49,073 bases of DNA from a virus (IMGVR_UViG_3300008266_000413:1-49073); one strand, 5' to 3'. Numbered from the stretch's first letter, positions 2,306 to 47,363 are shown. Made by a program: numbers and translations. Notes: generated by a model not told the origin, from the letters alone.

Positions 2306-2719
2306 TTAAGCACGTGTAATACCACGGGGGTCTTCAACCACAGCCTCAATTGAATCATCGTTGATGATCCGGAACTCGCGGCCATGAATCTTCATACGGG
2401 TACCTGAGTTAGGGCGGACAATTACAAAATCGCCTTCTTTACAGGAAGGGCCGCTAGGGAACCGCTTCTCGTCTTTGTAAGCATCCGGACCTAGTTTCAT
2501 AACAAACAACACAGGGGTCAACACTTCTTCATAGTGGATGGTGCTATCTGCCTTAATCAAACCGCTTTCAAACTGATCCTCAGCATCAGGAACTACAGTC
2601 AGAATGTGGTACGTTTTAGGTTCAGGAACCTGCATCGCTTTACGCTCCGGTGAATCAGGCAAGGTCGTTGCTGAGTCAAGGTTGTACATGTCCTGCCCTA
2701 TCAGAATTTCAGTCGTCAT
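2306..2719 (-). CDS. GroES-like co-chaperonin, 137 aa
   Basis: The pattern is that of the chaperonin-10 fold: an early Val/Leu strand (residues about 35-45, YHILTVV), a mobile-loop-like stretch containing ESGLI, then VLFVMKLGPDAY, a Gly/Pro turn, GDFVIVRPNSGTRMKIHGREF and a final strand with INDDSIEAVV. The order matches the strand order of GroES and of phage co-chaperonins such as T4 gp31, at a slightly longer length. It probably caps the host GroEL to fold the capsid protein, which fits its place next to the scaffold. Start chosen at ATG 2717-2719 (MTTEILIGQD), 6 nt after GGAGA, and it overlaps the previous gene by 11 nt. The functional call rests on pattern reading without an alignment. 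Confidence 0.65.
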   Translation of the reverse strand: MTTEILIGQDMYNLDSATTLPDSPERKAMQVPEPKTYHILTVVPDAEDQFESGLIKADSTIHYEEVLTPVLFVMKLGPDAYKDEKRFPSGPSCKEGDFVIVRPNSGTRMKIHGREFRIINDDSIEAVVEDPRGITRA

Positions 2720-2906
2720 CATCAGTCTCCAGTCTTTGCACGAGGTCATTACATAGTTGCTCTGCGAGGCTTAGTCCCCGGATTACCCCGCAGGTATACC
2801 GATATTCGGCAAAATCAGCAGCGCGACCTTGAGCGATAAATGCAGCTTGGTCTGCGCGTAGTTCTTCCAGTTTGCTGGTGAGATGTCTTAATGCCCGGTC
2901 GTCCAT
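2709..2906 (-). CDS. Small hypothetical protein, 65 aa
   Basis: It starts at an ATG overlapping the portal stop by one base (TAATG) and runs into the co-chaperonin gene by 11 nt, so it is translationally coupled on both sides. The protein (MDDRALRHLTSKLEELRADQ) is mostly one or two helices with an acidic end of four Asp. No family recognised. A small coiled-coil head protein or assembly factor is possible. Confidence 0.7.
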   Translation of the reverse strand: MDDRALRHLTSKLEELRADQAAFIAQGRAADFAEYRYTCGVIRGLSLAEQLCNDLVQRLETDDDD

Positions 2907-29582: not shown

Positions 29583-29618
29583 CCCCCGGCACCCCCTCTT
29601 TGGCCGGGGGATTTTTTT
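29583..29618 (+). terminator. Terminator T3 at the end of the early region
   Basis: CCCCCGGC and GCCGGGGG form an 8-bp stem with a 12-nt loop, followed by seven T. It ends plus-strand transcription exactly where the minus-strand late genes converge; the T-run overlaps the stop codon of the giant gene. No matching T-run is seen for the other direction. Confidence 0.9.
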
Positions 29619-32600
29619 ACTTCCCTTCCTTTCGCCGACGTTCCAGCACTTCTTTGTTGCGCTTGTCTAGCTCTTTGGTACCACCCAGCGCACTCTCCGC
29701 AAACACAGGGATATTCTTCTCTGTCATCGGCATACCGCTCCATGCTTCTCTGTTAGCTGTTTCTTCTTGGCGCTTCTCAATAGACTTCTCTAGCTGGTCG
29801 TCATCGATACCTTTCTCAGGATATTTGATATTGAACTTATCTCGCTTGTCCAACTGCTTTAAATAGCCGTCGAAGTTTCCAGTGCGCTGACCGTTAAAGA
29901 ACTCCCGAGATATATTATTCATGAGCTTGGTGCGCTCATTATCTACTTTTTGATTTAAAGCATTTAACTTAAACGCCAACTTCTGTGTATTCGATAACAG
30001 ATCAGATCGGAAACCAATAGACTGACCAACTAGTTCACCCGCAGTAAAGCCACCTTCCAAAATAATCTGAGTACCTTTAGCATCCCGAGCACCTTCCGCT
30101 GCATACTTATGCGCCAACACAAAGTTACGGATCAGCGCAGGGGACATCTTCTCAACGCCCTTCTGGTAGTCACCGTTACCAAACGCTTCGTACGCGTCGG
30201 CGAGGGACAGGATCATTGCAGCCGAGGGGCCAGCTTTCTCCATTGCTAGAGCTACTACGCTCTCTCTAGCTGTCTTGGTTTCTTTAACATCCCGCAGCCA
30301 TATATCATTCAAGCTTGTACGAGATGAGATGTCCCAGCCAGTTAGTGCGTTAGCTGCACCACGATCTATAATGTCGGCGAGTGATTTACCGTTGATCTCC
30401 ATGTGCCCGATCTGCTTAGGCAACCACACAGTGCGCCACCAAGTCTCGTAGTCCATGTCTTTAAGTTCTTGGGGCTTCTCTTCATCGCGCCACATCCAGC
30501 CGAGCAAGCCCATGACTATGCTAAACATAGGCAAGCCTGCAGCACCTGCCAAGATCATAGTCGTGCCGAGTGTACCGAAGAAAATCTTGGTGGCTTCCCA
30601 CTTACCTTCTTTGTTAAGCAGCGGGAGCATACGCTTAAAGTTGCGCATCAAGAACAATGTCACGTGCAGCGGGTACATCGCAAACTGCAGCATTACTTTA
30701 CCCAACCCTTTTTGCATAAACAGCGGGCGGTTGTATTGACCGTAGTTACCAAGAGATTCGTTAGTATCAACAACGGCTTGGCTGACTGATTCTTCATGTG
30801 ACTTACCGGCTTTACGATTCAGTCGGTACGAAGCAAGATAAATCATTTCCCGCGATAGGCGCTCAGTCGTGTGCATCAAGCCGCCGGTTGCCATAGCAAT
30901 ACCACGTTTTGTCTTTTGCACCGCGCTGCTAATGTCTTCAGTCGGTATGCTCTTGTACCCAAACATGGCACTTGCATAGGTGGACTGCGACACGTCACGA
31001 CCTATCATTTCACGGATTGCTCGCTTCTCGTCAGGCGTCATCCCTTTAGCGTTAGCAATACTAGGAGGAACAAACGACATGGAGCCATCTGGGTTTGTAC
31101 GGAAGGTGCCGTATTGATCCCATACCCGTAACATTTTTGTTAGTTCACGAGCGCCATTGATCGGGCCGTAGCGGGACATAAGGATTGGTAGGCCGGTCTG
31201 GAATACGCCGAGTGGTTGTAGCAGAGCCGAAGATGCGCCCGACAAGTACCAGAGGAACGCCGAACGGTTGAGGAAGTCGCCAACCTTATCTGCTCCAGAA
31301 CGCTCGCCGGGGTTGAGTTGTTGCTTGACCCGCGCTTGCATCTCCGTGATAAACGGTTGCAACTCCTCTCGACCTACGATGGAATCCTGAGCTGCCGACA
31401 ACGAATTGCGTAGGAGTGGAGCGTACTTAATCTTAGCCAACTGGGTTGCCATCTTAACGCCAGTGGTGGAGAAGTTACGCAGTAAGTCGGTTGAAAAGCC
31501 GGTGATGTTTTTACGAGTAATAAATTGCCGACGGAAACTTTGCTCCGGCATCGTAGTCAGATAAAGCTGATAGATCGAGTCTTTCAGTTCTTCCCGTACG
31601 TTCGGGTCTCCAAAGTTTTCTGCGTCAATAACATCGAACAGACCCTTTAGGATTGAGCTAGAGTCAAACGATGCACGGCGCAGGGTACCGATGTCGTTGC
31701 CGAGCACAAAGTCTTGGTCTTCCTTTAACTGCTCCAGCGGAGTCCGACGCTCTTTTGCCATTGCTTCAGCAGCAGCATCTCGATCGTTCATTGTTGCAAA
31801 CGTAAAGAACTGCCGGTGCTTACCGGAGCCAACAGCCAGCCAGAAATCGCCTCGGCGAACCAACGGTATGTATGGCTTAATCTTCTGGCCTGTTTCGTAT
31901 ATCTCACGAATCTTAGCCATCAGGCGGTTCTGCGTATCGAGTGTGACGTTGGAGTTTGCTATCTGCTCATCCAGCAACTGAGCAAAGTAATCCGACATGT
32001 TCTGGTAGTGCTCCAGAATCAGCTTAAATATCTGCTGCCCCTTCTCACCTAAGTCCTTGTACATCTGGTCAAGCTTAGAACTACGCTCGGCTGAGTTAGG
32101 GTCGGACGGATCAATCTGTGCAAGTGTCGAGGCGTACGCTACATCTTCTAGTTTGCGTTGCAGGGTCTTATCTGCTTTGAATGCTTTGTGTATGGTCTTA
32201 GCCATAATCGCAGACGAGTGCAGAAGCTGCTGTGTCAAGCCGCCCATCTTCTCCAAAAGCACGTTGGTGTTGATTAGTTCAGGGATATACGAGCCGCCCC
32301 ACTTTGACAAGAACTCAGTCGTCGGCAGCTTAACCAGCAGTAAACGCTGGGCGTAGGTTGCGCTTTTCCATATTTGGCGCATGGCGGGCAGAATCTTGCG
32401 AGGGTCACGCAGCGCCTGAAGCAGTTTGGATTGACGTGCAACTTCTTCAGCATTACGGCTGATGCGCACTTTCTCAATAGCTATGTCTACCTCACGGTTG
32501 ATCGTAGCCTGAGTTCTTACTGGGTCCTCTCCATCTTCCGCAGCTTCGCCAGCATTTCCGGCACCGACGCCGACTTCTCCAGTACCTTGGTAGCTCGCTC

Positions 32601-35600
32601 CAATGCCCTCGGATACTCCGGGTCCGGCTGCTTCTCCTGTAGTGCCAGCGCCTTCCATTGCTCCAGTAAGGCCTTCATTTCCGGTTTCGATGGCGCTAGC
32701 GTCTTGGAAGCGGTTTCCACGAGGTTCGAGATTTCCATTTTTGAATTCTCCATTTAGGAAGTCAAAGATATTGATGTACTTTTGGATGTGATCAGTCATC
32801 CGTTTCTTAGCGTCGGCCAGATCAAACGAAGGATGTACTTCCAGCAAGTTCATAATACGCTGCATTTCGGACGCAAACACTGCGTTGTGCCCACGGACTC
32901 GATGGTGCGCCATCTCGTGAATCATGGTGCCAATCATAGACACTGCAATCTGCCGAGAGTTATCGGCCATCGAAGTACTAGCGGGGTTGATATACAACCC
33001 ACTGAACGGAATGCGGATACTTACACCGTAATACTCTTTGTCGATGCTAATACCAATTGCTTCGTTAAGGATACCTGTATAGGTACCGTTGTCTTGCGTA
33101 GAAAGCGCATTCCGTAGCTCCATGAAGATGCTACCGATACCCGCCAAATACTCATCGTACTTTTTGCCAAAGGTTTCACGGGCTACTTCAGATAACGATT
33201 TTAACCGTGGGGTTTCAAATGGAATCTGTACAAAAATACCTGTATTCGCAAGTTTGTCTATAATTTCTTGTTCTGATTTTGCGTAAAACCCGTTAGACCC
33301 ATCAGCGTTGGAAACAAAATACTCTACCCCTTCCCCCACAGTCATTTCTTCAACGCGCCAGCCGGGGGGTAGCTGTTCCAAAATGTTGTTAACAGCCCCA
33401 GCATCTGACCCTTTAACCAACGTATTGTCGTGCACCATCACACGGTTGGTGTCGATCTTGTCCTGCGGGATTGTCAGTTCATCAATACGAATAGCTGTGT
33501 TTTTTAAGTCGTCATCGGTAAGCTCCGGCACAGCACGACCATTGACGTACATAACCCCTTCACGGACTTCCACTTGGTCGTCCGGCTTGATCATTGTGAA
33601 CGCAGTCGGCGTTGCCGGTACTTCTGGTACAAGTTCCTCTGGCTTAGTTAAAGTACCATCAGAGTTCACATATTGAATCTGTCCAAAGCTCTTGCTCTCA
33701 TCCGCAAACTGTTGCTGCTGGTAGATAGCGGTTATGTACCTAAATATTTTGTCAAAGTCACCGCGTATGCTTGGCGCAAAACCTTGACGGTTCAAGTCAA
33801 ACGGGTAGCCTGCATCTTCAGGTTTTACTTTTGGGGAGACATCAACGTAAAAATTACGTTTAATTTTTTCGCCATCCCAAGTGGGGCGGTCTTTAATACT
33901 GGTATCAAACTGCCATAAACCGTTAGACAGTATGTGGGTGTTATCGCCGTATACGTAATCTTGAACTTTTTTCTGTACATAAACCCTTGCCGTACCCCAG
34001 TCAAAGTTTACGTTTGCAAATGGGGTGTATTCATCAATTGGGAAGTTCGCGCCAATTGGCAATGTATCTGGAGACCCGTACGCGTCAACAGTAACTTCAA
34101 TGTTGTCAAAGAGCGGGCTTTTTTCTAAGACCGGACTCTCTTTCAAACTATAAACTTTAAACGGAATATCCTTTTCTTCCCCCGTGGACGCATCTTTATA
34201 AGTTGGTGGAATCTTTACAACAATAGTTGTACCGTGCCCGTCAGGGAACAGCGTCTTAGTGTACTGCTCAATTACTTTAGGGTCTGTCGATGTTGTAATT
34301 TTTGGGGCTAGACTTGGATCGTCTAGCGCAGCCATAACTTCTTCGCCAGTGGTAACCATACGCGCCAGCACACCGTTGCGCAGAGATACTACTTCCAGCT
34401 TTTCGTTACCAAACAGGAACAGCATCTTTGCGATGCCCAGACCACCTGATGCGCGATCTGTTTCTTTTACTGTACCCGCAATCGTGAGGAACTCATTACC
34501 CATCACCGACGCAGGCATACCAAGGCCATTATCAGTAACTGTGATCGTACGTGCTTTTTCATCCAGTTTGATGTCGATCTTACCTTTGGCAAGCTGACCT
34601 TTTTCCAGTGCGCCTTTAATTGCATCAAACGAGTTCTGGAATATTTCCTTGATCGAAACCTTTGCAATGTCGGTTGGGTCCCCGTATAACTTAGCACCTA
34701 GCAGCGCAGCCAGACGCTTAGCATTAGCCGACGGCTTAGTAGATATAGTCTCACCCGCAAACTCAGTTGTGGTGTCTTTATCTTTACCAAACCCAAACAA
34801 ACCCATCGGCGAGACGCCTTCCATCAGGTCAAGCGTACCAACTGGGCGAGCGGTAAGGATGTTGTCGGTTGCATCGAGCAAGTCGGCAAGTGCGTTTGTC
34901 TCCGAGGGGTCCATGCCAATCAAGCGACGCAGTGCATCAACGAACGCTGACCAGTACGACGTAGTGCCGCCGAGCGAGCCAGCCGACTTTAGGAATTCTT
35001 GGAAGGCTTGGTCGGTCATGCCGTACGCAATGAACTCACGTGGGTCGTCGAAGATTTCGCCAAACTGAGCAAGACGAGAGATATGCGCAGGTAATTTGCC
35101 TTGGGATGCAAGTTCGTTGAACCGCTCGCCAGCGTTGTTCATTATCTGGATCAGGTCTTCTGTAGCGCGTACAAGTTGACTGCCCTTGTGCAGACCTTTG
35201 GTAATAGCCTGTCGGCCTAGCTCTACCTTCTTATTAGTAGCCGCGTGCCACAACTCGTGCAGCAGGGTGACGTTGTTAACTCCCTGAGCTTCCCCAAAGG
35301 AAGCACCGCGTACGTAGATAGTTCTAGCACCGGTTGCGTAGTTCTCGATGTACAGCGCACGTGCACGACCCCATTCACGTTGATACCGTGGATTCTTAGT
35401 CAAAGCATCGGGTGTTGGGTCGTTAGCTTCGACTACGACAATCTTGACGTTACTAACAAAACTACGCAGGCGTTTAGCCAGCATCTTTTGGAACTCAGTA
35501 CCCGTCTTAATAATCTGGGTGATTGCTTGTGCACCGTTAGTAGCTTTGCCGAGTTTCTCGTCGGCTACGGTCTCAGCCGCTACTTGTTCAACAGCCTTAG

Positions 35601-38382
35601 ATGTAGACTCGGTAGCCGCCCGTTGTTTGCGATACTGATGGCCTTCAGCAGCATTTTTAATTTCCGCCGTCGAAGCATTCTGACTTAGCAGTTCAAGTGC
35701 GCGTTGCCCCGGCTTACCTCGGTTGGCTTTGGATATATCGTAGAGCCGGTTGATTGCAGACTGCCGCTGTCTAGCCTTGTTGTCGTACATCTCATCGAGA
35801 TGCTCACCTGACGTAGCTTCATCTTCGTTTACAGGCTCGGCTGATTCTACAAGGTCCCGCTCGGCATCGTTGACCTGCTTGTCTACGGCCTTGTACGCGG
35901 TGCGTTGTTGCTTACGCTTCTCGTCGGCAGTTAGCTTATCTGCGGGTGCGAGCCTTGGCCTTCCCCTTTTACCGGCTGCGGTGGAAACACCGGTTTCTGA
36001 TTCCTCTGTTCCTTGCGCTTCTGTTTGCTCGGCTTCAATGGTTTCAACGCCACTTTCTTCCTCCTGTTGTTGAGCTTCAGCTAATTGATCTTGGGCTTGC
36101 ATAAGCGAAGCCCGCGCATTTGAAGTTTCCAGCAAGTCGCCGTTTTCTTGCGCAATTACTAGGTCTCTCTCCGCACGGGCAACTTGTTCCTGCGCCTGTT
36201 CTAGTGCACTTGGCTGTACCGTCGTTCCTTCAGTAAATTCTCCAGTAGCTGTTCCAGCAGAAACCAATCCAGTGGAGAGAGCTTCTGTAGCTCCTCCGGC
36301 AGGTACTTCAGCTCCTCGTTCGCCAGACACTCCAGTGCCAAGCTCACCTGTTGCAGTGATAGATTTTCCAGCATCTGTAGTTCCCCCTTGTTCTGCCGCT
36401 GCGTCATTCTCAGCTTCCTGTTGCGCCATCAGTACCGCACGTTGTGCAGCTTCAACTGGGGGCATCCCCGCGCCAATCAAGTCGTCCGTTATTTCCTGTA
36501 CTCGGTTTTCAGCCGGTGCAATTAGCGTTTCGCGCTTAGTAACTTCTCGCTGTAGCTTGTCTTGGCGTTTCTCATCTTGCTCTTCTTGAGCACGTACTCG
36601 CCCCTCGGCTATCCTTACCGCTACATCAGGGTCAATACCGCTTGTGTCTACGAGCCTACTAGCAATCTCGTCTACTTGAGCTTGGCGTTTGGCAACGCGT
36701 TCTTCTTTAGCTTCTGGAGTTTCAGGTGGTTTAGCTGCCGTTTCGGTTGTAGCTTTTTCCCCAGCTTTCTCCCCGGCTGCTTCTTCCAGCGCAGTTTCAG
36801 TCGTAGTCTTACCGGTTTCAGTGCGTTTGGGTTTAACTATGAAGCCCTTCTCCCGCATAAGCTGCTCGGCAGTGGGGATTACTTCTGTTAAAGGTTCAGT
36901 TGGGGCAAAACGATCACTGGCTAGCTGCGCGGTTTTACCTATAGCCGAAACAGTACCCCCCATTAACGCGCTTTGGCCTACGGTCTGCACTAGCGTATCT
37001 GCCATCATTTGCAGATATTGCTCGACACTTGGTGCTTGGTTAACGCCAAAAGGTAAAACCCCTTTGATGTCTCCAAAAGTTTGCATAGCAAGCGTAAATT
37101 GCTCGCCCGGCACTTCTTTTTTCGCAGTGTTAACTACCCACTGTTTTATCCACTCCAAGGGTTTAGTTTTAAAAAGCCCTTTTACTAGTTGAAGTTCTTT
37201 CCCAAATCCCGGTATTTCCCCTAGCACTTCCGCCAAGGCCATCCATGAAGCTCGTGCATTTGCCATTGTTGGGTCTAATCCCAGTTGGCGGGACTCGGAA
37301 TAAGATTTACCAAACTGTTGCACAAACATGCCAGCCATTGGAACCGTTGCACCGCCAGTTAAAACCCCAAGTGCCATAACAGGTGCGTTCTCAGCACTAG
37401 AAGCAATTATGTTTTCGGCTTGCCGTTTCCAATAATCTGGATTTTCACCTATAGAGTTTTGTAGTCTTTTTTTCTCTTTCGCAGATAACGCTTGTGCACG
37501 TGCAAACTTATCCGCCCCTACCATTTCGGCTACAAATTGATTAACACCGTATATGGATTCCAGTAGGCCAGCCTTTGCTTTACCTAACCCACGCTCCAGT
37601 TGGGAAGCTTTTTTGTATTCTGCGGCAACGGCTTCGTCTATATCGACGGGTTCGGCCAGACCTTCGTAGCGCATGTAATTAATTTCTTGGCCTACGGGAA
37701 CCCCTGCGGCGGCAGATCGTCGAGCCGCTACTTCAGCAAACTCAGGCTTTTCCCCTGCTGCAATCAATCGTGCAGTGCGGTCCTCAACACTACGACCAAA
37801 CTGTTCTTCAGCCCCAAACGAGAGTGGTAAACCGACACGCTGCCGTCTCTCAAACTCCGTTCTGCGCTTGGTTTGTTTTTCCTTGAACTTTTTTGCATAC
37901 TCACGTATTACGTCCCCTTTAACCCCCTCAAGCCTTTCTAATTTGGCACGTTCTGCTGGACTACCTGCGTCGTAGGCGTTAACTAACGCTTGGCGTACTT
38001 CAGGGCGGATTGGGAGGAATGCGTCTTTCTGGGGTGGCCTTGGGGGTACGTCATTCATAATTCCAAGGTCAGGCTTGGTGTCAGCCATAATAGCTGCACC
38101 TAGGTCGCTACCCATAGGGTCGCCAAATGTAAAGTCGTCGCTAGGAACTGGTGGTTTTTTTGTCCGCGTAGGTGCAGGAACAATAGGCGTTGTAAGCGCA
38201 GGTGCAGGCTCAGGCGGAGGCTGCTTTGTTACAGTTTTGTTGGAAGCGGGTTTCGCTTCGGCTTTTTTAACTGGGGCGGGGTTGCCAAAAAGCTCAGCGC
38301 CTAAGTTTCTGCCCTCGGATGGAGCCGGTTCAGGTTTGGCCGGGGTATCAAAAAGTTCTGCACTCAAATCACGCCCGGCCAT
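29617..38382 (-). CDS. Giant polyvalent virion protein with GHKL ATPase and two zincin domains, 2921 aa
   Basis: Domains seen in order: a Pro/Lys-rich N-terminus with two copies of a GRxLxAELFxxPA motif; a hydrophobic segment near 330-360; long charged Glu/Ala/Gln helices (about 520-950); a zincin motif LLHELWHAATNK (HELWH about 1042-1046); a GHKL ATPase with KEIFQNSFDAI (about 1245), VTDNGLGMP (about 1280) and GGLGIAKML; a second zincin motif MIHEMAHHRV (HEMAH about 1822-1826); a long helical region; and a C-terminal part with MYPLHVTLFLMRNFKRML and a membrane segment (about 2600-2630). This fits the 'polyvalent protein' type thought to be packaged and injected with DNA. Last gene of the late operon. 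Confidence 0.8.
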   Translation of the reverse strand: MAGRDLSAELFDTPAKPEPAPSEGRNLGAELFGNPAPVKKAEAKPASNKTVTKQPPPEPAPALTTPIVPAPTRTKKPPVPSDDFTFGDPMGSDLGAAIMADTKPDLGIMNDVPPRPPQKDAFLPIRPEVRQALVNAYDAGSPAERAKLERLEGVKGDVIREYAKKFKEKQTKRRTEFERRQRVGLPLSFGAEEQFGRSVEDRTARLIAAGEKPEFAEVAARRSAAAGVPVGQEINYMRYEGLAEPVDIDEAVAAEYKKASQLERGLGKAKAGLLESIYGVNQFVAEMVGADKFARAQALSAKEKKRLQNSIGENPDYWKRQAENIIASSAENAPVMALGVLTGGATVPMAGMFVQQFGKSYSESRQLGLDPTMANARASWMALAEVLGEIPGFGKELQLVKGLFKTKPLEWIKQWVVNTAKKEVPGEQFTLAMQTFGDIKGVLPFGVNQAPSVEQYLQMMADTLVQTVGQSALMGGTVSAIGKTAQLASDRFAPTEPLTEVIPTAEQLMREKGFIVKPKRTETGKTTTETALEEAAGEKAGEKATTETAAKPPETPEAKEERVAKRQAQVDEIASRLVDTSGIDPDVAVRIAEGRVRAQEEQDEKRQDKLQREVTKRETLIAPAENRVQEITDDLIGAGMPPVEAAQRAVLMAQQEAENDAAAEQGGTTDAGKSITATGELGTGVSGERGAEVPAGGATEALSTGLVSAGTATGEFTEGTTVQPSALEQAQEQVARAERDLVIAQENGDLLETSNARASLMQAQDQLAEAQQQEEESGVETIEAEQTEAQGTEESETGVSTAAGKRGRPRLAPADKLTADEKRKQQRTAYKAVDKQVNDAERDLVESAEPVNEDEATSGEHLDEMYDNKARQRQSAINRLYDISKANRGKPGQRALELLSQNASTAEIKNAAEGHQYRKQRAATESTSKAVEQVAAETVADEKLGKATNGAQAITQIIKTGTEFQKMLAKRLRSFVSNVKIVVVEANDPTPDALTKNPRYQREWGRARALYIENYATGARTIYVRGASFGEAQGVNNVTLLHELWHAATNKKVELGRQAITKGLHKGSQLVRATEDLIQIMNNAGERFNELASQGKLPAHISRLAQFGEIFDDPREFIAYGMTDQAFQEFLKSAGSLGGTTSYWSAFVDALRRLIGMDPSETNALADLLDATDNILTARPVGTLDLMEGVSPMGLFGFGKDKDTTTEFAGETISTKPSANAKRLAALLGAKLYGDPTDIAKVSIKEIFQNSFDAIKGALEKGQLAKGKIDIKLDEKARTITVTDNGLGMPASVMGNEFLTIAGTVKETDRASGGLGIAKMLFLFGNEKLEVVSLRNGVLARMVTTGEEVMAALDDPSLAPKITTSTDPKVIEQYTKTLFPDGHGTTIVVKIPPTYKDASTGEEKDIPFKVYSLKESPVLEKSPLFDNIEVTVDAYGSPDTLPIGANFPIDEYTPFANVNFDWGTARVYVQKKVQDYVYGDNTHILSNGLWQFDTSIKDRPTWDGEKIKRNFYVDVSPKVKPEDAGYPFDLNRQGFAPSIRGDFDKIFRYITAIYQQQQFADESKSFGQIQYVNSDGTLTKPEELVPEVPATPTAFTMIKPDDQVEVREGVMYVNGRAVPELTDDDLKNTAIRIDELTIPQDKIDTNRVMVHDNTLVKGSDAGAVNNILEQLPPGWRVEEMTVGEGVEYFVSNADGSNGFYAKSEQEIIDKLANTGIFVQIPFETPRLKSLSEVARETFGKKYDEYLAGIGSIFMELRNALSTQDNGTYTGILNEAIGISIDKEYYGVSIRIPFSGLYINPASTSMADNSRQIAVSMIGTMIHEMAHHRVRGHNAVFASEMQRIMNLLEVHPSFDLADAKKRMTDHIQKYINIFDFLNGEFKNGNLEPRGNRFQDASAIETGNEGLTGAMEGAGTTGEAAGPGVSEGIGASYQGTGEVGVGAGNAGEAAEDGEDPVRTQATINREVDIAIEKVRISRNAEEVARQSKLLQALRDPRKILPAMRQIWKSATYAQRLLLVKLPTTEFLSKWGGSYIPELINTNVLLEKMGGLTQQLLHSSAIMAKTIHKAFKADKTLQRKLEDVAYASTLAQIDPSDPNSAERSSKLDQMYKDLGEKGQQIFKLILEHYQNMSDYFAQLLDEQIANSNVTLDTQNRLMAKIREIYETGQKIKPYIPLVRRGDFWLAVGSGKHRQFFTFATMNDRDAAAEAMAKERRTPLEQLKEDQDFVLGNDIGTLRRASFDSSSILKGLFDVIDAENFGDPNVREELKDSIYQLYLTTMPEQSFRRQFITRKNITGFSTDLLRNFSTTGVKMATQLAKIKYAPLLRNSLSAAQDSIVGREELQPFITEMQARVKQQLNPGERSGADKVGDFLNRSAFLWYLSGASSALLQPLGVFQTGLPILMSRYGPINGARELTKMLRVWDQYGTFRTNPDGSMSFVPPSIANAKGMTPDEKRAIREMIGRDVSQSTYASAMFGYKSIPTEDISSAVQKTKRGIAMATGGLMHTTERLSREMIYLASYRLNRKAGKSHEESVSQAVVDTNESLGNYGQYNRPLFMQKGLGKVMLQFAMYPLHVTLFLMRNFKRMLPLLNKEGKWEATKIFFGTLGTTMILAGAAGLPMFSIVMGLLGWMWRDEEKPQELKDMDYETWWRTVWLPKQIGHMEINGKSLADIIDRGAANALTGWDISSRTSLNDIWLRDVKETKTARESVVALAMEKAGPSAAMILSLADAYEAFGNGDYQKGVEKMSPALIRNFVLAHKYAAEGARDAKGTQIILEGGFTAGELVGQSIGFRSDLLSNTQKLAFKLNALNQKVDNERTKLMNNISREFFNGQRTGNFDGYLKQLDKRDKFNIKYPEKGIDDDQLEKSIEKRQEETANREAWSGMPMTEKNIPVFAESALGGTKELDKRNKEVLERRRKEGK

Positions 38383-38392
38383 ACTTTACTCC

Positions 38393-40117
38393 TTATTTAA
38401 TTTTGTACCCCTTAGCTTTGGCAGCAGCTTCAACGTCGGCTTCACTTCTTCCAGTCGCTGTGGCAGTAGCTTGAATATCAGCACGTGTGATTACTTTACC
38501 ACTAGAGGCCTGTGCTGGGGAATTTTTGTTTCCTGACTGGCTTTTATCTGGAGCGGGGGCTGCAGGTTCATCCAACACCGGCTTTGGAATAGGAGGATAC
38601 CTAGCATCAATTTCTGCCTCCAGCTCTCTCTTCTTCTTTTCATCCCCTTTGATGTAGTCGCGGTTAAATGTTTTAAGCTTATTCTTCTCCTCAGCAATAG
38701 CTTTCTGCCGGGCAGTTTCAGCCTGCCCCCACTCGGTCACCGCTTTATCGTGGTTAATCTTCTTCTGGCGTCTGTCTTCCTCAAGCTTATCTTGTTCAAT
38801 CTTGTTCCGCTCTTTTTCCAGCCTGCGCTGTTCCTTCTTGTCCGCTTCGGTGGCCGTTTGAGACTTCTCGTCAGTCGTTGCTTCTCTCTTTCTAACGTCC
38901 ATAACCTCCCCAGCCGGGAGTTTAGCCCAGTCGCTCGCTGCCTCTTTGTAGGCAAGTTTTCTAACCGCCGTATCTGACTTGCGATCTTTTTCTGGCAGCG
39001 CATCATTTTCGGCTTTAGCGGCTTCGTAATAAGTAAGTGCTAACGCGTCAAAGTTCTTAGGTGTTTTGTCCCCTGTACCCACTGGTCTAGTAGCCCGAAC
39101 CATATTGGACATCAAAAGGCCCATATTTTTAACTTTATCCATGCCAAACTTCTGCGCAGCCAGATTGTCTTGACGTGCTTGATCAGCGGCAGCAATAGCC
39201 TCGCGGTTGAGACCCATCTTCTCTTTACGTTGTGCGTCGGCAAGGTTGAACTGCATAGACATCAGAGAACGTTTCTCAGCCCGATCTGCCTGCATAGCTT
39301 GGCCGTACACATTTGCAAAAGCTCCACCTGCTCTTCCAAGCCCCCGCGCTAAACCGCCCGGCTCCATAACAGCCCCAGCTGCCATTAGCATACCCAGACC
39401 TTTGGCCTGCCCTAAATTCTGTGCGCGTTCCCCCTCAAGTCCGGCTATTTGTTGTTTAAGTTCACCATAGGGGCTAGGCTCCGCGCCTTCTTCAAGCAGT
39501 GCTTTCCGTGTATTAAACGCCGTCTTGTACTCTTCAGGTTTAAACGCCGTGTACTGCATGTTCTCCATTCTCTGTAACACACCGGGCAATCTTGCAGCAA
39601 TGCTTTGGTTAGTGACGGGGTCGCCAAGCGACTCTTGCCCTGCTTGGGAGTCTTGAAAATCAGCCAGCATATCAGCGGTTAAAGAGTCTTCTTGTCCTTC
39701 TACCAAGCTTTGACCCTCCCCAGCAAACGCCACGATACCGCCACCTGCGTAATCTGCATCACTACCTTCAGGCACAGGCATACCCTCCAGACCGGCGCTC
39801 GGCTGTTGCTGAGCTTGCTGCATCCCCGGTAGTCCTTGTGGCTGTTGCATCTGTTGTGGCATTTGTGGCATTTGTGGCATTTGCGGCATAGTCGGCGAAA
39901 GCGCCTGCTCGACCATCGACGGTTGGTTCTGATACTGTTGCCCACGCATAGCAGCTTGCGCCATCTCATACCGCTGGGCTTCCTTTTGTAGCTGGAGTGC
40001 ACGTAGCGCCGCATACGGATTGATGTCCGTACTGCCTTGGCCGAGCACCGCTGCTTTAAGTGGCGAGGGGTCTTTCTGATAGCGTGCGGCTAATATAGCT
40101 GCTGTGTCGATAGTCAT
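38393..40117 (-). CDS. Gln/Met/Pro-rich virion protein, probable ejection protein, 574 aa
   Basis: Residues about 60-110 are rich in Gln, Met and Pro, including a tandem MPQ repeat. A motif DYAGGGIVAFAGEG follows (about 124-137). The middle is Ala/Gly-rich and helical (about 230-290), and the C-terminal 200 residues are highly charged helix ending with a small SAP-like helix pair (TRADIQATATATGRSEADVE). It lies between the giant protein and another Gln-rich protein. An internal virion or ejection role is inferred from composition and place. Confidence 0.6.
   Translation of the reverse strand: MTIDTAAILAARYQKDPSPLKAAVLGQGSTDINPYAALRALQLQKEAQRYEMAQAAMRGQQYQNQPSMVEQALSPTMPQMPQMPQMPQQMQQPQGLPGMQQAQQQPSAGLEGMPVPEGSDADYAGGGIVAFAGEGQSLVEGQEDSLTADMLADFQDSQAGQESLGDPVTNQSIAARLPGVLQRMENMQYTAFKPEEYKTAFNTRKALLEEGAEPSPYGELKQQIAGLEGERAQNLGQAKGLGMLMAAGAVMEPGGLARGLGRAGGAFANVYGQAMQADRAEKRSLMSMQFNLADAQRKEKMGLNREAIAAADQARQDNLAAQKFGMDKVKNMGLLMSNMVRATRPVGTGDKTPKNFDALALTYYEAAKAENDALPEKDRKSDTAVRKLAYKEAASDWAKLPAGEVMDVRKREATTDEKSQTATEADKKEQRRLEKERNKIEQDKLEEDRRQKKINHDKAVTEWGQAETARQKAIAEEKNKLKTFNRDYIKGDEKKKRELEAEIDARYPPIPKPVLDEPAAPAPDKSQSGNKNSPAQASSGKVITRADIQATATATGRSEADVEAAAKAKGYKIK
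39857..39892 (-). repeat. 9-bp tandem repeat encoding MPQ
   Basis: About four copies of GGCATTTGT (plus strand) encode Met-Pro-Gln repeats. The repeat is in frame. Confidence 0.85.
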
Positions 40118-40124
40118 TTTTACC

Positions 40125-41099
40125 TCAACCTAATTGATGCAGTGCAATCCCACCCAAGCCGTAGCTGGGAGTTTCATCTACGGAACCGCCTCCAGCAAAC
40201 ACACCCGCTTGCTTAAGACCCGCAGCGCCAAGTCCTAAACCCACAGCCGTTTGAGCCATTGTAGGTGGAGCTTGGTACATAGTCTGTGCTTGTTGGGCTA
40301 GGGGTAAACCGCGCAGCATGTCTGACATAAACGCCAACTGCGTATACGGATACTGGCGTTGTGATTGGAAGTCTCCGTATTGCTGTGCCAGCCGCTGCTG
40401 TTCTAGCGCCTGCTGCTGCGCACCCATGCTTGATTGGCCTTGGATAATGCCTTGCTGCTGACCAAACTGCGTCTGCCCCAATTGCCCCAGCGTGTTCGCC
40501 ATCTGCCCTGCTTGGCCGTAACCACGTAACCCTAAGTCAGCACCGAATTGCTGGGCTTGACGAGCTTGCTCAAACGCCGATTGCATACCACGCCCGTAAA
40601 TATCCCCCTGCTGCTGCGCTAGGTTACGCTGGCGTTCGGCTTCCATAAGGCCAAAACGCGAACCACCAAAAGCACCGGCTTTAACCGCCTGCCCCATGTT
40701 TTGCTGGCCTTGAATTGCTGAATTACGAGCCGCTTCACGCATCTGGGGGGCAAGTGCGTTTTCTATATACGGCGACATGTACGCTTGCATAGCGTAGGGG
40801 TTAGTAGCCTGTTGTGCAAACTGCTGACCTGCACCCAGTGACCCAAGACCGCCTATACCCGCAAGTTGTGTTGCAGTGCCTAGCTGCTTTGCGGGTTGGA
40901 GATTCGCCATGTTTTGCTGGGCTTGCTGCTGCATTGGCGTGAACCCAGCAATCCGCTCGCCCTGATATGCTTGGTAGGGGGCATTAGTAAGTGCCTCTGA
41001 CTTACCTAGCATCCGTTCCACATACGGTTGAGCGTACTCAGGGATCGACGTTTGGGTAACGTTTTGGCTAGTTGGCTGCGGTTGTGATGATGAGCACAT
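40125..41099 (-). CDS. Gln/Ala/Gly-rich virion protein, probable ejection protein, 324 aa
   Basis: MCSSSQPQPTSQNVTQTSIP starts a protein dominated by Gln, Ala and Gly with periodic Gln-Gln helices (AQQNMANLQ, QQQALEQQRL). The end has a Gly-rich motif (FAGGGSVDET, SYGLGGIAL) similar to motifs in both neighbours. The Cys at position 2 is not part of a clear lipobox. It sits 7 nt from the downstream gene. A virion ejection or tail-assembly role is inferred. Confidence 0.6.
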   Translation of the reverse strand: MCSSSQPQPTSQNVTQTSIPEYAQPYVERMLGKSEALTNAPYQAYQGERIAGFTPMQQQAQQNMANLQPAKQLGTATQLAGIGGLGSLGAGQQFAQQATNPYAMQAYMSPYIENALAPQMREAARNSAIQGQQNMGQAVKAGAFGGSRFGLMEAERQRNLAQQQGDIYGRGMQSAFEQARQAQQFGADLGLRGYGQAGQMANTLGQLGQTQFGQQQGIIQGQSSMGAQQQALEQQRLAQQYGDFQSQRQYPYTQLAFMSDMLRGLPLAQQAQTMYQAPPTMAQTAVGLGLGAAGLKQAGVFAGGGSVDETPSYGLGGIALHQLG

Positions 41100-41108
41100 A
41101 GTATTACC

Positions 41109-41570
41109 TCAAAATGTATATATCATTTGAATCGCTGCCTCTTTAAAACCCATTCGTTTCCAAAGTTTGGCAACCCTCAAATCTGTTAGCGCAGCAACCG
41201 ACGCTCTTTTCACGCCGCGCTCTTTTAACTCGTCCAGTATTACCCGCACAAACTTCTTACCTATACCGTTGCGGTGTTCTGGTAAAACATAAATCGTATC
41301 TTCCTGTGCAATCAAATCGCCGTTGTGCATATCGTTAGTAAGATACACATTACTGCACCCAACAGCCTTCCCTTCATGCCGCAAGATAAACGTCAGCAAA
41401 TCACCTCGATCCCCCGCCGCAAAGTACTGATCCCATCTAGGGTTGTACGGCGAGTACGGTATGCCATCTTTGGCAAGTCGCTCAACCATTTCCTCATAAT
41501 GCTGGCGATATAACGGCTCAAGCTCATCAAATGTTTCCCGATGTTTACCTAAATGAAACGTGTAGCTCAT
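41109..41570 (-). CDS. GNAT-family acetyltransferase, 153 aa
   Basis: The acetyl-CoA-binding motif A is clear: IYVLPEHRNGIGKKFVRVIL (residues 93-112), a strand with the HRNGIGKK loop and a helix. Motif B follows with ASVAALTDLRVAKLWKRMGF. The N-terminal part is helical. It would transfer an acetyl group to an amine on a protein or small molecule. It overlaps the neighbouring virion gene by 4 nt and is therefore made late, so a virion protein is a possible substrate; that is speculation. Confidence 0.88.
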   Translation of the reverse strand: MSYTFHLGKHRETFDELEPLYRQHYEEMVERLAKDGIPYSPYNPRWDQYFAAGDRGDLLTFILRHEGKAVGCSNVYLTNDMHNGDLIAQEDTIYVLPEHRNGIGKKFVRVILDELKERGVKRASVAALTDLRVAKLWKRMGFKEAAIQMIYTF

Positions 41571-46194: not shown

Positions 46195-46797
46195 CTACCT
46201 AAACGCGGGGCCACCGACCCATAACACCAACGAACGACGGACACCCTTTGTTACAGGCGCTACCCTGTGCAGAGTATATGACGGAAAGAACCATGCCCTA
46301 CCCTTTAGGGTCTCCAGCGTCTGCACTGTGTCGTTACTAGTCTTTACTTGAAACTCACCGCCTTCGAAGTTAGACGGGTCAGACAACAGCATGGATAAAG
46401 ATAACTTTCGTGGAACGTTCCTATCCGTGGGGGAGGCATCTGTATGCCAATCGTAATGCCCCTGCTGCGCCTCTGTGTACAACCCTAACTGCATAGGCTC
46501 ATGGAATCCGGTCAAGTCAAAATGAAAAAACCGACTGTTAACTTCCGCAACAGCACCCGCCAATTTTTCCCATATGTGTTGTAACTCGGGCTTCGCGCCT
46601 ATCCATGCCACTTGACTTGCCCTAATTTTTTCGTCAACCGCGTTTTTATCACCAGAACCACCGACACAACCAGCCTGAAGATTTAACCATTCTGGCTGGG
46701 CAAGAAACAAGTTAATATCTTCGGGCGTAAGAAACCCTTCCCAATACGCGAGGTGGTCTTTGCCGGGTATAGCTCGTGGTGGTATCGGATAAATCAC
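46195..46797 (-). CDS. 2-oxoglutarate/Fe(II) oxygenase, prolyl-hydroxylase (PKHD) type, 200 aa
   Basis: The double-stranded beta-helix motifs are complete: HTD at 118-120 (HYDWHTDAS), a strand region SLSMLLSDPSNFEGGEFQV, the distal His177 (YTLHRVAPV) and Arg187/188 (GVRRSLVLWV) that would bind 2-oxoglutarate. This is close in pattern to bacterial PKHD-type hydroxylases. It would hydroxylate a protein side chain or small molecule. A GTG start overlaps the previous stop (GTGA). It is the last of three consecutive oxygenase-like genes. Confidence 0.9.
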   Translation of the reverse strand: MIYPIPPRAIPGKDHLAYWEGFLTPEDINLFLAQPEWLNLQAGCVGGSGDKNAVDEKIRASQVAWIGAKPELQHIWEKLAGAVAEVNSRFFHFDLTGFHEPMQLGLYTEAQQGHYDWHTDASPTDRNVPRKLSLSMLLSDPSNFEGGEFQVKTSNDTVQTLETLKGRAWFFPSYTLHRVAPVTKGVRRSLVLWVGGPAFR

Positions 46798-47363
46798 TTA
46801 GACTCCATCATATGGGTTCTATCTTTCCCGTAAGAATATATACTGCGCGTAGTGTTATCGCCAACTTCCCCTGCGTATTCCCCATGTTTACGTACAAAAT
46901 GCAAAAAGACTTGTCCTGCGTAATATCCTTCGGGGCCATTGCACTTGTCACGCCAATGCTCAATATCGCATCCGGGGTAAATTACACCATCCCCTTCAGC
47001 TAAATCAAACCGTTGCCCACCCATGTAAATAGGCCAAGCGTAGTGATGCGACCGCCCAAGCTGAATTGTTACACTCACCTCACACGCTGGCCTATCTTTA
47101 TGCCGTTCAAGCACATCACCGTTGCTGTACAACCTAGCGTAAGCATATGTTGGGATTAACTCCTCGCCAACAGCTTTTTCAATAACAGGCCACAACCGTT
47201 CGTGCAAAGTCTCAAACATATACTCGTGATCCAAAATACTCTTTGCACTTGGTACTTGGTCGTCACCTTTTGGGTTTAAATCCGCTTGACGCATGAGTAC
47301 GTGCGTAAAAAAATGGCAAAACTCAACAGGAATTACTTGGCGGAGAACAATTGGGTTTAACAT
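46794..47363 (-). CDS. 2-oxoglutarate/Fe(II) oxygenase, 189 aa
   Basis: HKD at residues 88-90 (LERHKDRPACEVSVTIQLG) and the distal His136 (DIEHWRDKCNGPEGYYAGQV) supply the iron ligands, and Arg138 may contact 2-oxoglutarate. The HKD...HWR layout is that of phage and bacterial 2OG-Fe(II) oxygenases of unknown substrate. It overlaps the next oxygenase by 4 nt and follows the third by 12 nt. The pair probably acts in one process. Confidence 0.85.
   Translation of the reverse strand: MLNPIVLRQVIPVEFCHFFTHVLMRQADLNPKGDDQVPSAKSILDHEYMFETLHERLWPVIEKAVGEELIPTYAYARLYSNGDVLERHKDRPACEVSVTIQLGRSHHYAWPIYMGGQRFDLAEGDGVIYPGCDIEHWRDKCNGPEGYYAGQVFLHFVRKHGEYAGEVGDNTTRSIYSYGKDRTHMMESK

What the first reader, a model, noticed from the sequence alone, without database searches (positions are those of the whole stretch)
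29617..38382. 2921-residue polyvalent protein with GHKL ATPase and two zincins
One protein joins HELWH, a GHKL ATPase (N-box, DNGLGMP, GGLGIAK) and HEMAH, plus membrane segments at both ends. GHKL with zincin in a single injected protein suggests an effector that acts on host proteins just after entry, for example as a chaperone-like ATPase that feeds a peptidase. It takes 18 percent of the window.
Basis: partly seen in the sequence, partly recalled or inferred. Interest (0 to 1): 0.7.

Follow-up and report, generated by a model that had tools for sequence, protein, structure and literature searches.

The report
Phage giant protein with Hsp90-like peptidase module
A 2,921-residue phage protein, probably packed in the virion and injected into the host, carries an ATPase that resembles the chaperone Hsp90 joined to a zinc peptidase of the Wss1/SprT type, and this pair stays together with intact active sites in every one of 90 related viral proteins examined, so it looks like one ATP-driven protein-cutting device that, as far as the papers I could search show, had not been described.

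Summary
ORF 38382..29617 (2,921 aa, good Shine-Dalgarno) is intact and holds HELWH, a complete GHKL ATPase and HEMAH. It is a phage 'polyvalent protein': its last 700 residues match NCBIfam PLxRFG/tail-700 far above cut-off, and it lies just behind a DNA-ejection-type gene, an order kept in related phages. New here: the ATPase and the second zincin are one unit. In 90 of 90 non-identical viral proteins found by ATPase-only, zincin-only or whole-unit searches, both occur in the same order, 96-191 residues apart, always in giant proteins; catalytic residues are invariant in the 69 aligned. AlphaFold2 (pLDDT 87.5) plus Foldseek place the ATPase part nearest Hsp90/TRAP1/HtpG. The second zincin has the HExxHx5H ligand set of Wss1 (WLM type). 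The first is the ordinary HExxH...E polyvalent-protein MPTase, absent from many relatives. The unit was not found in 50,697 phage records, 72,556 plasmids or, one phage-like contig apart, GTDB genomes. I infer an ATP-gated protease delivered at entry; its client (host protein, DNA-bound protein or the giant protein itself) is unknown. 'Membrane segments at both ends' is weak. New variant of a known kind.

The parts
29617..38382 (-). giant polyvalent protein gene, 2,921 aa
   Evidence: intact ORF; Shine-Dalgarno AAGGAG at 38394-38389
38275..38382 (-). N-terminal tail with a repeated short motif (GRDLSAELFDTP ... GRNLGAELFGNP)
   Evidence: sequence; relatives have other short repeats at the same place
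37324..37380 (-). weak hydrophobic stretch aa 335-353
   Evidence: Kyte-Doolittle 1.55
34870..35589 (-). zincin 1 region aa 932-1171 (HELWH aa 1042-1046 at 35245-35259; candidate third ligand E1116 at 35035-35037)
   Evidence: conserved H,E,H and E in 26 sequences; absent in many relatives
33688..34767 (-). Hsp90-like GHKL ATPase, N and middle parts, aa 1206-1565; N-box 34624-34647, DNGLGM 34516-34533, GGLGIAKM 34423-34446, invariant R1532 at 33787-33789
   Evidence: Pfam HATPase_c/_3; invariant motifs; AF2 + Foldseek nearest to Hsp90 family
32695..33195 (-). zincin 2, WLM/YgjP/SprT type, aa 1730-1896; HEMAH aa 1822-1826 at 32905-32919, third His 1832 at 32887-32889
   Evidence: H,E,H,H invariant; YgjP-like in 54 and WLM in 37 of 69 members at E<=0.1
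32695..34767 (-). whole ATPase-zincin unit aa 1206-1896
   Evidence: co-occurrence in 90 of 90 viral proteins; AF2 pLDDT 87.5
31915..32340 (-). LPD39-like region aa 2015-2156
   Evidence: Pfam PF18858 26.9 bits, cut-off 27; well above cut-off in relatives
29743..31875 (-). C-terminal PLxRFG / tail-700 domain aa 2170-2880, with a weak hydrophobic stretch aa 2600-2618
   Evidence: NCBIfam NF032893 364 bits vs cut-off 100; phrog_10089 2e-61; 152 isolate phages
38393..40117 (-). 574-aa Q-rich protein, gene directly upstream
   Evidence: same neighbour upstream of the giant gene in related loci
40125..41099 (-). DNA ejection protein-like (phrog_4287)
   Evidence: E 4.8e-15; conserved upstream of the giant gene

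Best explanation
This is a giant cargo (polyvalent) protein of a podovirus-like phage, most likely packed in the virion by its N- and C-terminal parts and delivered with the DNA. Its enzymatic core is a single ATPase-protease unit: an Hsp90-like GHKL ATPase plus middle domain that opens and closes with ATP, followed by a WLM/SprT-type zinc peptidase. I think the unit binds a client in the ATP-driven clamp and presents it to the adjacent peptidase, and that it switches on only in the host cytoplasm, where ATP is available. The most likely clients are host proteins met just after entry. Shown: intact gene, motifs, pairing, gene context. Predicted: folds. Inferred: packaging, injection, ATP gating, proteolysis, clients.
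For: Pairing: 90/90 non-identical viral proteins carry both domains in one chain, same order, gap 96-191 aa; searches seeded by the ATPase alone and by the zincin alone found neither alone in viral contigs. All catalytic residues of both are invariant in 69 sequences. Evolutionary distances of ATPase and zincin correlate (r 0.83-0.84). AF2 model pLDDT 87.5 with the top 50 Foldseek PDB hits all Hsp90/TRAP1/HtpG/Grp94, E down to 4e-13; NCBIfam's best families for the ATPase are HSP90, then topoisomerase VI-B. The second zincin has HExxHx5H, the same spacing as the Wss1 zinc ligands His115/119/125 (PMC5557861). Polyvalent context: PLxRFG/tail-700; LPD39, LPD38, ART-PolyVal, NUDIX, LPD22 in relatives; ejection-type neighbour gene conserved upstream; the same slot in isolate phage MinM2 holds a 2,803-aa LPD38 protein.
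Against: No virion proteomics, no biochemistry, no client. Coupling was checked only on the best 80 loci per search (of 109, 150 and 180 relatives). The Hsp90 resemblance of the middle domain is structural only: profile comparison of that segment with HtpG found nothing, and no Hsp90 C-terminal dimerisation domain was identified. A GHKL clamp could as well act on DNA. Iyer et al. argue that zincins in such proteins largely cut the polyprotein itself (PMC5512222).
Confidence: 0.45

Rival explanations
1. Self-processing: the zincins cut the giant protein into its working parts, and the ATPase serves as an arrival sensor that releases the second zincin's activity only when ATP is met in the host.
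For: Processing is the main role proposed for zincins of polyvalent proteins and fits P1 DdrB (PMC5512222). A low-complexity Gly/Ala/Glu linker follows zincin 2 (aa about 1897-1960), where a cut would separate the C-terminal domain.
Against: A plain protease suffices for self-cutting; nothing explains why an Hsp90-like ATPase is always kept. The linker sequence looks variable between members, so no cut site is evident. N4 vRNAP is packaged uncut despite its zincin.
Confidence: 0.25
2. Genome clearing: the GHKL clamp closes on DNA, as its topoisomerase VI/MutL relatives do, and the Wss1/SprT-like peptidase removes host proteins bound to the entering phage DNA (nucleoid proteins, restriction or nuclease complexes).
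For: WLM/SprT peptidases Wss1 and SPRTN act on DNA-bound proteins and are DNA-dependent (PMC5557861, PMC5127644). Topoisomerase VI-B is among the next best sequence matches. Delivered with DNA, the protein would be near it.
Against: Fold matches rank Hsp90 first. No DNA-binding domain was recognised in the unit. The WLM match is weak (37 of 69 members at E<=0.1).
Confidence: 0.2
3. Virion assembly or ejection factor: the Hsp90-like part folds or threads the giant protein and its neighbours; the zincin trims virion proteins during maturation or ejection.
For: Conserved place behind the ejection-protein genes; GroES-like co-chaperonin gene in the same genome.
Against: Phages related by TerL and portal have a different protein in the corresponding place and no detectable unit (MinM2, HTVC027P, DSL-LC04), so assembly does not require it.
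Confidence: 0.1

Closest known systems
Phage polyvalent proteins (Iyer et al. 2017, PMC5512222), incl. PLxRFG/tail-700 giant proteins of podoviruses
   Same: Giant multidomain protein beside virion genes; HExxH...E zincin; LPD39/LPD38/ART/NUDIX domains in this or related copies; C-terminal PLxRFG domain
   Different: That paper's main text has no mention of GHKL, Hsp90, SprT or WLM; here an Hsp90-like ATPase and a WLM-type zincin form a core not seen apart
Hsp90 family (HtpG, TRAP1, Grp94)
   Same: GHKL ATP site and, by predicted fold, N plus middle domains; an invariant Arg in a loop reminiscent of the SRE loop of HtpG
   Different: No match to Pfam HSP90 PF00183, no C-terminal dimerisation domain seen, fused to a peptidase, inside a phage cargo protein
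WLM/Wss1, YgjP and SprT-like metallopeptidases
   Same: HExxHx5H zinc ligands with Wss1 spacing; weak profile matches
   Different: Below curated cut-offs; fused to an ATPase; no DNA-binding part recognised
T4 rIIA-type GHKL phage proteins
   Same: Phage GHKL ATPases of similar fold
   Different: No sequence support (hhalign probability 0.6%); no zincin; not in the virion cargo slot

Membership tests
phage polyvalent protein | several unrelated effector domains in one large chain | tested here: met
   GHKL ATPase, two zincin kinds, LPD39-like, PLxRFG domain
phage polyvalent protein | encoded among late virion genes | tested here: met
   behind phrog_4287 ejection and virion structural genes, conserved order
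phage polyvalent protein | packaged and delivered into the host | not testable with these tools
   needs virion proteomics
PLxRFG / tail-700 (NF032893) | score above curated cut-off | tested here: met
   364.3 bits vs 100
GHKL ATPase superfamily | N-box Glu/Asn, DxGxG, GxxG, GT motifs | tested here: met
   invariant in 69 sequences
Hsp90 family | Hsp90-type N and middle domains | tested here: inconclusive
   Foldseek nearest to Hsp90 but the middle segment has no sequence support
Hsp90 family | match to Pfam HSP90 PF00183 | tested here: not met
   no match in the window
Hsp90 family | C-terminal dimerisation domain | tested here: inconclusive
   none recognised; the chain continues into the linker and zincin
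WLM/SprT-type zincin | HExxH plus third His ligand | tested here: met
   H617 E618 H621 H627 of the unit invariant, spacing as in Wss1
WLM/SprT-type zincin | profile match above curated cut-off | tested here: not met
   best member E 9.9e-05 (WLM) and 2.1e-05 (YgjP-like); scores shown are below cut-off
polyvalent-protein MPTase (zincin 1) | HExxH and Glu in a later helix | tested here: met
   H111 E112 H115 E185 invariant in 26 sequences

The most novel reading that the evidence does not exclude
A virion-delivered, ATP-gated chaperone-protease: an Hsp90-like clamp welded to a Wss1-type peptidase that captures and cuts host (possibly defence) proteins at the moment of phage entry. To my knowledge no Hsp90-protease fusion has been described.
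Probability: 0.35. Interest if true: 0.82.

Novelty: new variant of a known kind. Interest (0 to 1): 0.62.

Why it matters
To my knowledge it would be the first Hsp90-like ATPase fixed to a protease in one chain, and a new way for a phage to act on proteins within the first moments of infection. The unit is compact (about 690 residues), carries all predicted catalytic residues and has a confident model, so ATP dependence, proteolysis and clients can be tested directly. It recurs in uncultured phages and is missing from isolate collections, so it could easily have been overlooked.

Tried and rejected
Chance motifs: rejected by conservation. T4 rIIA homology: structural GHKL similarity only, sequence comparison 0.6%. 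MutL or GyrB as closest relative: HtpG scores better than MutL, and MutL better than GyrB. Sequence proof of the Hsp90 middle domain: none. Isolate phages: the window's unit and two divergent members found no phage record over the unit. Plasmids: only stand-alone GHKL proteins. GTDB genomes: first scan none, second six, of which only L257 has both halves, separated by a run of N. The first AF2 run with six sequences was poor (pLDDT 51.9) and was replaced. Literature on phage Hsp90 or GHKL-metallopeptidase fusions: nothing found. 'PLxRFG' with virion mass spectrometry: no useful paper.

Full report
Observation. The ORF runs on the minus strand from 38382 to 29617, 2,921 aa, ATG, with AAGGAG and a 6-base spacer before it. 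Membrane segments are weak by hydropathy.

What surrounds it. The record is a 49-kb virus contig with TerL, portal, DNA polymerase, helicase and primase genes. TerL and portal are closest to Pelagibacter phages HTVC027P/HTVC023P, phage DSL-LC04 and MinM2/Pag-Yong1. Upstream on the same strand lie a 574-aa Q-rich protein, a DNA-ejection-type protein (phrog_4287), a GNAT and virion structural proteins. In related contigs the 574-aa gene abuts the giant gene (48 loci) and the ejection-type gene lies upstream of it (64 loci). In the isolate phage MinM2 the corresponding place holds a 2,803-aa protein with LPD38 and no ATPase match. So the slot looks like a cargo slot whose content is exchangeable.

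Architecture. N-terminal tail with repeated short motifs; a long variable region; zincin 1 (HELWH, E1116); the Hsp90-like ATPase (1206-1565); a linker; zincin 2 (1730-1896); an LPD39-like region; the PLxRFG/tail-700 domain.

The ATPase-zincin unit. A scan of viral contigs with six sequences gave 109 relatives. Separate scans with only the ATPase (180 relatives) and only the zincin (150) were made to avoid circularity. Over all loci fetched, 90 non-identical viral proteins have both domains, none has only one, the gap is 96-191 aa and complete ORFs are 1,895-4,248 aa stop to stop (a 5'-open one reaches 5,550 aa). Limits: only the best 80 loci of each scan are returned, and some of the 90 are near-identical. 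Across 69 sequences the ATP-site residues and the four zinc-site residues are invariant. Distances of the two domains correlate at r 0.83-0.84. The unit is therefore under joint constraint, whereas zincin 1 and other effector domains (ART, NUDIX, LPD22) come and go.

Fold. With 69 sequences AlphaFold2 gives mean pLDDT 87.5, pTM 0.71. Foldseek against PDB lists only Hsp90-family entries in the top 50, E to 4e-13; TM-scores are modest (0.32-0.35 of the query), as expected if only the ATPase part matches and its two domains sit in another relative pose. Against viral models the best hit is an unnamed viral protein with 32% identity over the whole unit, followed by GHKL proteins such as rIIA and viral Hsp90. 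An invariant Arg (R1532, YPFxLNRQ) resembles the loop LPLNVSRE in HtpG, but profile comparison did not support it, so I treat it as a suggestion.

Zincins. Zincin 2 is HExxHx5H; Wss1 binds zinc with His115, His119 and His125, the same spacing (PMC5557861). Zincin 1 is HExxH plus Glu, the configuration described for polyvalent-protein MPTases (PMC5512222; alignment).

Mechanism. Best supported: a virion-delivered, ATP-gated protease. Shown by sequence: intact sites, pairing, context. Predicted: fold. Inferred: packaging, injection, ATP gating, proteolysis, clients. Rivals are self-processing, clearing of DNA-bound proteins, and an assembly role.

Novelty. The protein is a member of a known kind (polyvalent/PLxRFG), but the Hsp90-like/WLM-type unit was not found in the literature searched nor in phage, plasmid and, one phage-like contig apart, genome collections. 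The literature library is open-access only, and supplementary tables of the polyvalent-protein paper were not read, so an earlier description elsewhere cannot be excluded.

Noticed in passing
38275-38382 (-) and N-termini of relatives: The N-termini of these giant proteins carry short, varied, tandem motifs (DLSAELF, FVPLSE, FFDTFD, WEVVSEAP, EYTPL, FSDLVP) or an FPDG-type segment; one relative (L007) repeats DLSSELF at its very C-terminus. They may be packaging signals.
   Followed up: partly
L257: A phage-like contig binned in a Neisseriaceae MAG (with genes resembling ribonucleotide reductase and DNA ligase) encodes both halves of the unit, interrupted by a run of N; its zincin reads HEINH with Glu, not His, at the third-ligand place.
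   Followed up: partly
L092 15886-24297 (phage MinM2): A 2,803-aa LPD38 protein annotated RelA/SpoT sits in the same place behind the same ejection-type genes; Pfam gives a weak ART-PolyVal match.
   Followed up: partly
41109-41570 (-): GNAT-like acetyltransferase gene among virion/ejection genes.
   Followed up: no
2306-2749 (-): GroES co-chaperonin-like gene next to the portal gene; HTVC027P and DSL-LC04 have one too.
   Followed up: no
46195-47363 (-): 2OG-Fe(II) oxygenase-like gene preceded by a gene of a PHROG named ferrochelatase.
   Followed up: no
L053 2-16651: A relative with an open reading frame of at least 5,550 aa, cut at the contig end, also carrying an ART-PolyVal domain.
   Followed up: no
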